Source of the DNA: Phycisphaerales bacterium
Lineage (GTDB): Bacteria > Planctomycetota > Phycisphaerae > Phycisphaerales > UBA1924
DNA: 64,000 nt
Direction: 5' to 3'
Assembly (NCBI GenBank): GCA_020850415.1
Contig: JADZER010000030.1
Location: 124,001-188,000 of the forward strand
The notes under the pieces were generated by a model that did not search any database, was not told where the DNA came from, and saw only the letters and a program-made list of their open reading frames with translations. Position numbers and translations under genes: made by a program. Positions within the stretch are counted from its first letter, which is position 1; each line of letters begins with the position of its first letter. This document shows, piece by piece, positions 12,017 through 60,497 of the stretch.

Positions 12017-12072
12017 GGGTGAATGGGTGAATGGGTGAGTGGGTGAGTGGGTGAGTGGGTGAGTGGGTGAGT
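12017..12072. repeat. 8-bp tandem repeat (GGGTGAAT)2(GGGTGAGT)5
   Basis: Seven consecutive 8-bp units read directly in the sequence. Confidence 0.97.
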
Positions 12073-12107
12073 GGTCTGGATGCTACCGTGGGACGATCCG
12101 GCCGTCG

Positions 12108-34553: not shown

Positions 34554-36233
34554 ATGCCGAACCTGAGTCGAACCGAATTCTGCGCCCTGGCCGCCCGGGA
34601 GCGGGCCCGATCGCCCGATGCCGCCCTCGCGATCCCCCTGGCCGTGCGTCTGCTCAGCGATCAGCTGACCCCCGTGCTGTGCTACCGGCGCCTCGTGGCC
34701 CCCGACGAACGCACCGCCCCCTCGTTCCTCCTCGAGTCCGTCGAGGGGGGCGAGCGCCAGGGCCGCTACTCGATCCTCGGGGCCCGCCCCATCGTCGAGG
34801 TCGTCGCCCACCAGCACACCGTCACGGTGCGCGACCACCGCGACGCCACCCGCTCCGGGGGCGAGGCCCCCAACCCGCTGCTTGTCCCCCGCCAGCTCAC
34901 CGAGGGCCTGCGCCTCGTGCGCCCCGCCCCGCGCTCCCCGCGCGAGGAACTCCCCCACTGCCCGTGGGGCGGGTGGTTCGGCTACGCCAGCTACGACACC
35001 GTCCGCTACGCCGAGCCCGAGAAGCTCGCGTTCGCCAACGCCCCGCACGATGACCGCCACCTGCCCGACATGCACTTCGCGCTCTACGACGGCGTCGTCG
35101 CGTTCGACCATGTCGCCAAGCTCGTGCATGTCGTCCAGCTCGCGATGCTGGGCCCCCAGGCCGACCCCGGCGCCGTCTACGACACCGCCGCCGCGAAGCT
35201 CGAGGCCCGCGTCGAGGAGATCCATCGCCACTCCAAGCCCCTGCCCGCCGGGCGCGTCGGGGCCGAGGCCCCCGTGACCCCGTCGCCCAGCAACACCACC
35301 CGCGAGCAGCACGCCGCGATGGTGGAGCGAGCGCTCGAGTACATCCGCGCCGGCGACATCTTCCAGGTCGTCCTCGGCCAGCGCTTCGAGCGGCGGAGCG
35401 CCGTCGACCCGTTCGATGTCTACCGGGCCCTCCGCGCCGTCAACCCGAGCCCCTACATGGTCTATATGCAGTGCGAGGGCTGCATCCTCGTCGCCTCCAG
35501 CCCGGAGATCCTCTGCCGCGTCCGACGCCAGCCCGACGATACCCTGGTCATCACCAACCGCCCCCTCGCCGGCACCCGCAGGCGCGGCTCGACCGCCGAA
35601 GAAGACCGCGCCCTCGAGGCCGAGCTCCTCGCCGACCAGAAGGAACGCGCCGAGCATGTCATGCTCGTCGACCTCGGGCGCAACGATGTCGGCAAGGTCG
35701 CGCTCGCCGGCTCCATCGACCTCCCCACCGTCATGGAGATCGAACGCTACAGCCATGTCATGCACATCAGCTCGACCGTGACCGGCACGCTCCGCCCAGG
35801 GCTCGACGCCTGGGACGCCCTCGTCGCCACGCTCCCCGTCGGCACCATCTCCGGGGCCCCCAAGATCCGCGCCCTCCAGATCATCGACGAGCTCGAGCCC
35901 GTCCGACGCGGCCCCTACGGCGGCGGCATGGGCTATGTCACCCTCGACGGCGAGATGGACATCGCATTGGCCCTCCGCACCATGGTCGTCCCCACGGAGG
36001 GTGGCACGGCTCCCGGTGGCGCGGCTCTCCGAGCCGTAGATGAAGAAAGTCAGACTCACGGCTCGGAGAGCCGTGCCACCAGAACCTGGACCTACCACAT
36101 CCAAGCCGCCGGCGGCATCGTCGCCGACTCCAAGCCCGAGCCCGAGTACCTCGAGACCGTCAACAAAGCCGCCGCCTTGGCCCGCGCGATCGACCTCGCC
36201 GACGCCGCGTTCACCGCGACCGCCGGGTCCTGA
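34554..36233 (+). CDS. trpE: Anthranilate synthase component I
   Basis: SPYMVYMQCEGCILVASSPEILCRV, PLAGTRRRG, DLGRNDVGKV, GTISGAPKIRALQIIDELEP motifs; contains a palindromic insert (see repeat). Confidence 0.95.
   Translation: MPNLSRTEFCALAARERARSPDAALAIPLAVRLLSDQLTPVLCYRRLVAPDERTAPSFLLESVEGGERQGRYSILGARPIVEVVAHQHTVTVRDHRDATRSGGEAPNPLLVPRQLTEGLRLVRPAPRSPREELPHCPWGGWFGYASYDTVRYAEPEKLAFANAPHDDRHLPDMHFALYDGVVAFDHVAKLVHVVQLAMLGPQADPGAVYDTAAAKLEARVEEIHRHSKPLPAGRVGAEAPVTPSPSNTTREQHAAMVERALEYIRAGDIFQVVLGQRFERRSAVDPFDVYRALRAVNPSPYMVYMQCEGCILVASSPEILCRVRRQPDDTLVITNRPLAGTRRRGSTAEEDRALEAELLADQKERAEHVMLVDLGRNDVGKVALAGSIDLPTVMEIERYSHVMHISSTVTGTLRPGLDAWDALVATLPVGTISGAPKIRALQIIDELEPVRRGPYGGGMGYVTLDGEMDIALALRTMVVPTEGGTAPGGAALRAVDEESQTHGSESRATRTWTYHIQAAGGIVADSKPEPEYLETVNKAAALARAIDLADAAFTATAGS
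36000..36080. repeat. Palindromic element inside trpE
   Basis: GGTGGCACGGCT (36000-36011)/AGCCGTGCCACC (36069-36080) and CGGCTCTCCGAGCCGT (36022-36037)/ACGGCTCGGAGAGCCG (36058-36073) perfect inverted arms. Confidence 0.96.
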
Positions 36234-42221: not shown

Positions 42222-42245
42222 GAACCCAGTCTACCGCCCCACCCT

Positions 42246-42294
42246 CATCCTTCATCCTTCATCCTTCATCCTTCATCCTTCATCCTTCATCCTT
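42246..42294. repeat. 7-bp tandem repeat (CATCCTT)x7, perfect
   Basis: Seven consecutive perfect units read directly. Confidence 0.98.
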
Positions 42295-42332
42295 CCGCCT
42301 TCTCCCTCCCCCTACCCTCCCCCAGGCCCCCC

Positions 42333-59426: not shown

Positions 59427-60497
59427 ATGTCCAGCCCGGCCCGACTCATCGACGCCAACGCCAACCGGGCCCGGGAGGGGCTGCGGGTGGTGGAAGATCT
59501 CGCCCGGTTTGTCCTCAATGACGAGGGCTTGTGCGCCGCCCTTAAGGGTGTTCGCCATGGGCTCGGGGAGGTGCTGGCGGTCCTGCCGGTCGATCGGGGC
59601 GTGCTGCTGGCCTGGCGCGATACGCCGGGGGATGTCGGGACTGGCCTCGTCGGTACCGGCGAGGGAACGCGGGCGGGGCTGCCCGCGATGTGCGGCGCCG
59701 CGGCGGGGAGGCTGGGCGAGGCGCTGCGGGTGATCGAGGAGGGGGCCAAGGTGCTCGGCGCGGGCCAAGCCGCGGCGGCGGTCGAGGCCCTGCGATACCG
59801 GGCGTACGACGCGTGCGCCGCCGTCGAGCGGGCGCTGGGGACGGGGCGGGCGGGGCAGTGGCGCTTGTGCGTGCTGATCACCGAGGCCCTGTGCGTCCAC
59901 CACCGGTGGGAGCGGGTGGCGGAGCTGGCGATCGAGGGCGGGGCGGACTGCCTGCAGTTGCGGGAGAAGGGGTTGGACGGGGGGGAGCTGGTGGCGCGGG
60001 CGCGAGCGCTGGTGGAGACTGCAAAGTCCGGCTCGGAGAGCCGGGCCACCTCGGTGAGCGTGATCGTCAACGACCGCGCGGATGTCGCCCTCGCGGCCGG
60101 GGCCGACGGGGTGCATGTGGGGCAGGGCGACATGCGCGTGCGCGATGTGCGCCGGGTCGCGGGCAACGCGCTGCTGGTGGGAGTGAGTACCGCAAACCTG
60201 GACCAAGCGCGGGCCGCGGCACGCGATGGCGCGGACTACTGCGGCCTGGGACCGATGTTCGCGAGCTCCACCAAGCCGAAGGCCTCATTGGCGGGAGTGG
60301 GGTATATGCGGGCGTATCTGGCGGACCCGGCCTGCGCGCGCCTGCCGCACCTGGCGATCAGCGGCATCGGGCCGGAGAATGTGGGCGAACTCGCGGCGGC
60401 GGGGTGCCGCGGGGTGGCGGTGAGTTCGGTGGTGTGTGGGGCGGGGGAGCCGGGGGCGGTGTGCGCGGTGTTGGTGGAGAAGCTTGGCGCGGCGTAG
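59427..60497 (+). CDS. thiE: Thiamine phosphate synthase with N-terminal ThiD2-like domain
   Basis: LIDANANRAREGLRVVEDLARF; CLQLREKGLDGGEL, VNDRADVALAAGADGVHVGQGD, DYCGLGPMFASSTKP. Confidence 0.94.
   Translation: MSSPARLIDANANRAREGLRVVEDLARFVLNDEGLCAALKGVRHGLGEVLAVLPVDRGVLLAWRDTPGDVGTGLVGTGEGTRAGLPAMCGAAAGRLGEALRVIEEGAKVLGAGQAAAAVEALRYRAYDACAAVERALGTGRAGQWRLCVLITEALCVHHRWERVAELAIEGGADCLQLREKGLDGGELVARARALVETAKSGSESRATSVSVIVNDRADVALAAGADGVHVGQGDMRVRDVRRVAGNALLVGVSTANLDQARAAARDGADYCGLGPMFASSTKPKASLAGVGYMRAYLADPACARLPHLAISGIGPENVGELAAAGCRGVAVSSVVCGAGEPGAVCAVLVEKLGAA
60028..60050. repeat. Short palindromic insert inside thiE, same core as the trpE element
   Basis: CCGGCTCGGAGAGCCGGGCCACC; core 60030-60050 differs at one base from 36060-36080. 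Confidence 0.93.

What the first reader, a model, noticed from the sequence alone, without database searches (positions are those of the whole stretch)
60028..60050. The trpE palindrome core also occurs inside thiE, translated in the same frame
GGCTCGGAGAGCCGGGCCACC (60030-60050) differs at one base from GGCTCGGAGAGCCGTGCCACC in trpE (36060-36080). Both are read as G-S-E-S-R-A-T. In ThiE the extra residues (VETAKSGSESRATSV) come just before the conserved VIVNDRADVAL strand, a likely tolerant loop. Two unrelated biosynthetic genes with the same element in the same frame suggests a protein-coding palindromic repeat family, with selection for a harmless peptide.
Basis: partly seen in the sequence, partly recalled or inferred. 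Interest (0 to 1): 0.77.

Follow-up and report, generated by a model that had tools for sequence, protein, structure and literature searches.

The report
Translated mobile palindromes in housekeeping genes
A short hairpin-forming DNA repeat, probably copied around by a bacterial transposase, has been inserted dozens of times into working genes of a planctomycete and is read through as a few extra amino acids, nearly always in the same reading frame, so thiE and trpE are two examples of a genome-wide habit.

Summary
The 21-bp core in thiE (60030-60050) and trpE (36060-36080) differs at one base and both copies read GSESRAT. The genome holds 75 such cores (0 reversed controls; 136 at <=3 mismatches); a same-genus genome holds 139. 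The full unit is GGTGG + 8-bp stem + TCC loop + 8-bp stem: a REP (repetitive extragenic palindrome) of the GT[A/G]G-tagged superfamily, often paired in inversion as a REPIN. The one-base difference is one side of a compensated stem pair. ThiE relatives lack the insert (net +6 aa); TrpE carries a 30-aa insert facing zero residues in solved homologues. Here 35 of 59 clusters lie in genes; all 30 ORFs scanned have known Pfam domains (dnaE, ffh, dnaK, uvrA, five tRNA synthetases). One codon phase dominates in both orientations (32/39 and 21/30). Relatives carry RAYT transposase genes flanked by such REPs, one sharing this stem core, and about 20 RAYTs are themselves nested in frame in rdgB, valS, leuS or miaA. 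In-frame REPs are known (Opitutus; Rickettsia RPEs), so this is a new variant of a known kind. Mobilisation by RAYT and the cause of the phase bias are inferred.

The parts
60027..60050 (-). REP copy in thiE: tag GGTGG (60046-60050 on the minus strand), stem, TCC loop, stem; read on the plus strand as S/G-S-E-S-R-A-T
59427..60497 (+). thiE host gene (ThiD2-ThiE fusion)
   Evidence: Pfam TMP-TENI 2e-47 and ThiD2 4e-33; insert absent from 29 relatives
36057..36080 (-). right REP arm in trpE, tag outward (36076-36080), read as H-G-S-E-S-R-A-T
36015..36038 (+). left REP arm in trpE, tag 36015-36019, read as G-G-A-A-L-R-A-V; with the right arm an inverted doublet (REPIN) spaced by 18 nt
36000..36014 (+). 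15-bp half-unit GGTGGCACGGCTCCC on the tag side of the left arm
   Evidence: such half-units adjoin 21 of 81 full copies in this genome
34509..36233 (+). trpE host gene; residues 495-524 are the insert
   Evidence: Pfam; zero residues opposite 495-524 in PDB 5cwa and 7bvd; relatives

Best explanation
The thiE sequence is an intragenic copy of a short non-autonomous mobile palindrome: a REP of the GT[A/G]G-tagged superfamily, built as tag GTGG directly followed by an 8-bp stem with a TCC loop. It is dispersed singly or as inverted doublets (REPINs), most likely in trans by a RAYT-type HUH tyrosine transposase acting on the hairpin in single-stranded DNA. Units land in and between genes. In genes only insertions that keep the frame, avoid stops and fall in tolerant loops survive. 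One codon phase (GGT|GGC...; ...GCC|ACC) is favoured in both orientations, probably because it puts Gly-Gly at one junction and Ala/Pro-Thr at the other, whereas other phases put Trp, Cys-His, Pro-Pro or a stop there. Shown: repeat family, tag and hairpin, stem covariation, REPIN pairing, in-frame gene copies, absence in relatives, phase bias, RAYT genes flanked by REPs of the same architecture. Inferred: mobilisation of this stem family by a RAYT, and selection as the cause of the phase bias.
For: 75 exact copies against 0 reversed controls. GTGG tag, TCC loop and compensatory changes at stem pairs 2, 6, 7 and 8 over 231 copies. Tag before 115 of 320 hairpins against 1.9 expected in loci picked for the core. 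ThiE, TrpE and DnaK relatives show the filled sites empty or differently filled. 35 of 59 clusters in genes; phase 32/39 and 21/30. All 30 ORFs scanned are known protein families. RAYT genes flanked by GTGG or GTAG hairpins in G000, G002, G003 and G005. The leuS-nested RAYT of G015 is flanked by REPs with the same core CGGCTC-TCC-GAGCCG. The identical hairpin with the canonical GTAG tag occurs in Pirellulaceae. A GTGG-tagged substrate is still cleaved by one TnpA-REP in vitro (PMC8266576).
Against: No RAYT in this genome was found flanked by the CACGGCTC or CCCGGCTC REP (three of its seven RAYT hits were not inspected). No near-identical strain was at hand, so exact insertion boundaries and target sequence are unknown. 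The cause of the phase bias is not shown.
Confidence: 0.8

Rival explanations
1. The phase bias is mechanical: the element inserts beside a pre-existing CCACC/GGTGG, or another phase-biased target, and no selection on the peptide is needed.
For: The phase is the same for REPs with different stems and peptides. In thiE the residues R-A-T could correspond to R-P-H of relatives, as if CGGGCCACC were partly there before.
Against: In coding DNA of the window CCACC falls 59:56:12 over the three phases and GGTGG 15:88:31 (favoured phase first), which does not predict 32:3:4 and 21:4:5.
Confidence: 0.2
2. Copies arise and are kept alike in place by hairpin-templated repair, slippage and gene conversion rather than by transposition.
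For: 15-bp half-unit arrays on the tag side of 21 of 81 copies. The DnaK site shared by G000 and G003 changed stem type on both sides.
Against: Dispersal to dozens of unrelated genes, a constant tag, and RAYT genes flanked by the same architecture.
Confidence: 0.1
3. A coding peptide motif (GSESRAT) selected for protein function, with the palindrome a by-product.
For: The peptide recurs in dozens of enzymes.
Against: Many copies are intergenic; copies occur on both strands and in other frames; the stem covaries; host proteins are unrelated.
Confidence: 0.02

Closest known systems
GTAG-tagged REPs (Di Nocera et al. 2013, PMC3733652; GT[A/G]G definition in PMC3686654), above all the Opitutus terrae family GTAG-20, mostly GTGG-tagged
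   Same: GT[A/G]G tag, short perfect stem next to the tag, inverted doublets, in-frame intragenic copies, DNA repair and tRNA synthetase genes among the targets.
   Different: More than half of the clusters lie in genes here, and a preferred codon phase in both orientations is measured. The O. terrae stem and frames could not be compared (figure and supplement not held; record not in the collections).
REPINs and REPtrons (RAYT with cognate REPs)
   Same: Inverted REP doublets; RAYT genes flanked by hairpins with the same tag and loop in relatives.
   Different: The cognate RAYT of this stem was not found in this genome. In relatives, RAYTs with their REPs sit in frame inside rdgB, valS, leuS and miaA; no report of this was found in the searches made.
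Rickettsia palindromic elements (RPE; PMC3767692, PMC2229807)
   Same: Palindromes in frame in unrelated conserved genes, tolerated.
   Different: RPEs reviewed there are 105-146 bp in AT-rich Rickettsia; this one is 24-28 nt with a GTGG tag.

Membership tests
GT[A/G]G REP superfamily | 5' tetranucleotide GT[A/G]G next to a palindrome | tested here: met
   GTAG-tagged copies of the same hairpin in Pirellulaceae
GT[A/G]G REP superfamily | 20-40 bp, high copy number, stem-loop supported by covariation | tested here: met
GT[A/G]G REP superfamily | Mostly extragenic location | tested here: not met
   35 of 59 clusters in genes in this genome; mostly intergenic in G003 (13 of 81 in genes). Descriptive rather than exclusive: intragenic REPs are accepted members (PMC3733652).
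REPIN | Two REPs in inverted orientation, tags outward, short spacer | tested here: met
   trpE pair; 19 tag-out pairs in this genome and 38 in G003. The thiE copy is a single REP.
RAYT-mobilised REP | RAYT gene flanked by the cognate REP | tested here: inconclusive
   Other stems flank RAYTs in the genus; same core flanks the G015 leuS-nested RAYT, tag GTAC; none found for this stem in G000
RAYT-mobilised REP | Cleavage of the hairpin by the RAYT | not testable with these tools
   needs biochemistry
Rickettsia RPE | 105-146 bp palindrome of Rickettsia | tested here: not met

The most novel reading that the evidence does not exclude
A lineage of REP/RAYT transposons has adapted to live inside protein-coding genes. 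Its transposase ORF and end palindromes form one stop-free reading frame in a fixed codon phase, so whole units (in rdgB, valS, leuS, miaA) and their short offspring (in thiE, trpE, dnaE and others) are carried as tolerated insertions in essential enzymes: an intein-like niche without known splicing.
Probability: 0.4. Interest if true: 0.82.

Novelty: new variant of a known kind. Interest (0 to 1): 0.62.

Why it matters
REPs are named extragenic, yet here more than half of the clusters are translated in genes such as dnaE, ffh, dnaK and several tRNA synthetases, in a preferred codon phase. That makes an old question, how selfish DNA becomes protein sequence, testable with a short, abundant element. 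The in-frame nested RAYTs in relatives point to a transposon lifestyle inside essential genes that was not found described in the literature searched.

Tried and rejected
Chance recurrence: rejected. Insertion beside pre-existing phase-biased CCACC/GGTGG as the cause of the frame bias: counts do not fit. Stop codons alone: same-strand copies with the usual stem are closed in one frame (VARLSEP-stop), but opposite-strand copies are open in all three and still 32/39 use one. A RAYT of this genome flanked by this stem: not found in the loci inspected. A vehicle in viral contigs: 0 hits. Structure of the ThiE loop: the single-sequence model had pLDDT 42.9 and was not used. One search was run one base out of frame and found nothing; repeated in frame. 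Phase test outside the genus: only five in-gene copies, too few. Opitutus terrae record not in the collections.

Full report
WHAT WAS CHECKED. At up to three mismatches the window holds three copies against 0.04 expected; the third is the inverted partner in trpE. The whole genome (4.43 Mb, 84 contigs) holds 75 exact cores and none of the reversed control pattern, or 136 within three mismatches.

WHAT THE UNIT IS. Comparing 99 copies from this genome and 132 from the same-genus genome G003 gives GGTGG, then an 8-bp stem, a TCC loop and the complementary stem, usually followed in this genome by AGTC-like bases. The base that differs between thiE and trpE pairs with a base that differs on the other side of the stem: CACGGCTC/GAGCCGTG against CCCGGCTC/GAGCCGGG. 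Compensatory pairs also occur at stem positions 6, 7 and 8. Copies were picked with at most one mismatch in seven pairs, so the pairing rate is biased upward; the variety of pair types is the evidence. GTGG precedes 115 of 320 perfect 8-bp, 3-nt-loop hairpins in the fetched loci against 1.9 expected (the loci were chosen for holding the core). Many copies form inverted doublets with tags outward; trpE has one, spaced by 18 nt.

INSERTION, NOT ANCESTRY. ThiE in 29 relatives lacks the insert. The closest one (72% identical, G003) reads ARPHSVPVIIND where this one reads AKSGSESRATSVSVIVND, a net +6 residues. Counting from REK to ND, this protein has 38 residues, G003 has 32 and B. subtilis ThiE has 35, so loop length varies but the repeat-bearing one is the longest of these. 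The insert lies between a helix and a strand, which in a TIM barrel is the face away from the active site (inference from the known fold). TrpE residues 495-524 face a zero-residue gap in PDB 5cwa and 7bvd. In DnaK this genome has three tandem copies at a site where G003 has one copy at the same offset and most relatives have none. In TrpE, G002 and G003 carry a different insert (GGCRGLESPPP) in the same loop.

HOW MANY ARE IN GENES, AND IN WHICH FRAME. A codon model trained on the window and scored only on flanks at least 45 nt away puts 35 of 59 clusters in this genome and 13 of 81 classifiable clusters in G003 inside one open coding frame (the trpE cluster was not called, so the count is conservative). 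All 30 ORFs scanned matched Pfam families, among them DNA polymerase III alpha, SRP54, Hsp70, UvrA, RecG, EngA, NadA, phosphoglucose isomerase and five tRNA synthetases, plus a phage portal protein. Counting one copy per cluster, copies on the strand opposite the gene use the GSESRAT phase in 32 of 39 cases and copies on the same strand use the GGTALRAV phase in 21 of 30 (p = 5e-10 and 5e-5 against 1/3; 7e-5 and 0.04 against 1/2). Codon boundaries fall at the same place in the element in both orientations. Counts of CCACC and GGTGG by phase in coding DNA do not predict this.

RELATION TO RAYT TRANSPOSASES. RAYT-like genes occur in 46 of 61 genomes searched. In G000, G002, G003 and G005 some are flanked by tag-hairpin REPs with other stems: TGCAGGCT, GACCGGCT, CCCGGCAC. 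The last differs from this family's CCCGGCTC by one compensated pair. The G015 RAYT in leuS is flanked by REPs with the same core, CGGCTC-TCC-GAGCCG, but a GTAC tag. No RAYT of this genome was found flanked by the thiE-type REP. The identical hairpin occurs with the canonical GTAG tag in Pirellulaceae, including Roseimaritima, and with GTGG in most Phycisphaerales loci. In a sample of 395 Planctomycetota genomes only two, this one included, have an exact match, so the family is patchy, as mobile DNA is.

AN UNEXPECTED EXTENSION. One RAYT subtype is itself nested in frame inside housekeeping genes: rdgB (G000, G001, G002, G003, G015, G019, G027, G035), valS (G006, G010, G018, G019, G039, G051), leuS (G011, G015, G027, G031, G036) and miaA (G005). 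Pfam found host and Y1_Tnp domains in one frame for 17 of these 20; G002, G006 and G019-rdgB rest on flanking residues, and for G019-rdgB only the N-terminal side was seen. Nineteen of the twenty best hits to a miaA-nested RAYT lie in open frames of 399-1517 aa. Where their REPs are still recognisable they are read through on both sides, almost always in the same phase as in thiE although stems and peptides differ (GTGFQPV...HRLEAGPT, GTDLQSV...GLQIRPT, GTGVSPV...GRDARAT). A RAYT tree groups them largely by host gene: 6 label changes against 14.5 in shuffles; many forks are weak and only five free-standing RAYTs were included. Because these RAYTs are related, their phases are not independent events.

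INTERPRETATION. The thiE copy is best explained as an intragenic REP, probably moved by a RAYT in trans and tolerated in a loop. The phase bias most likely reflects survival of the least harmful reading: what all families share is the tag, which in the favoured phase encodes Gly-Gly or Gly-Thr at one end and Ala/Pro/Ser-Thr at the other, against Trp, Val, Cys-His or Pro-Pro in other phases. This is inference; a mechanical cause is not excluded.

KNOWN OR NEW. In-frame intragenic REPs are known, most of all in Opitutus terrae, whose GTAG-20 family mostly carries GTGG, with DNA-repair and tRNA-synthetase genes among the targets (PMC3733652). In-frame palindromes are also known as Rickettsia RPEs (PMC3767692, PMC2229807). 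This is therefore a new variant of a known kind. What was not found in the literature searched is the phase bias in both orientations and the in-frame nested REPtrons.

Noticed in passing
L144:4460-5887 (G000:C30, same contig but outside the window) and L372-L391: RAYT transposase domains nested in one open frame inside rdgB, valS, leuS or miaA, with their REPs read through on both sides; 20 cases at four host genes among 61 genomes.
   Followed up: partly
36000-36014, and 21 of 81 full copies in this genome: 15-bp half-units (tag plus half stem) in tandem on the tag side of the palindrome, up to seven, read as ESRAT/QSRAT/PSRAT repeats in genes. How they arise is unexplained.
   Followed up: partly
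L293, L295 (TrpE of G002 and G003): The same TrpE loop carries a different palindromic insert (GGCRGLESPPP) in two same-genus genomes, as if the loop were a repeated landing site.
   Followed up: partly
L012 and L313 (DnaK of G000 and G003): REP at the same offset in both genomes, with the stem changed on both sides (CAC..GTG against CCC..CGG), three tandem copies in one and one in the other.
   Followed up: partly
L014:712-2388 minus strand (G000:C13): A copy lies in frame in an SPP1-type phage portal gene, so a prophage has also taken up the repeat.
   Followed up: no
12017-12074 and 42245-42295: Near-perfect short tandem arrays, (GGGTGAGT)x7 and (TCATCCT)x7.
   Followed up: no
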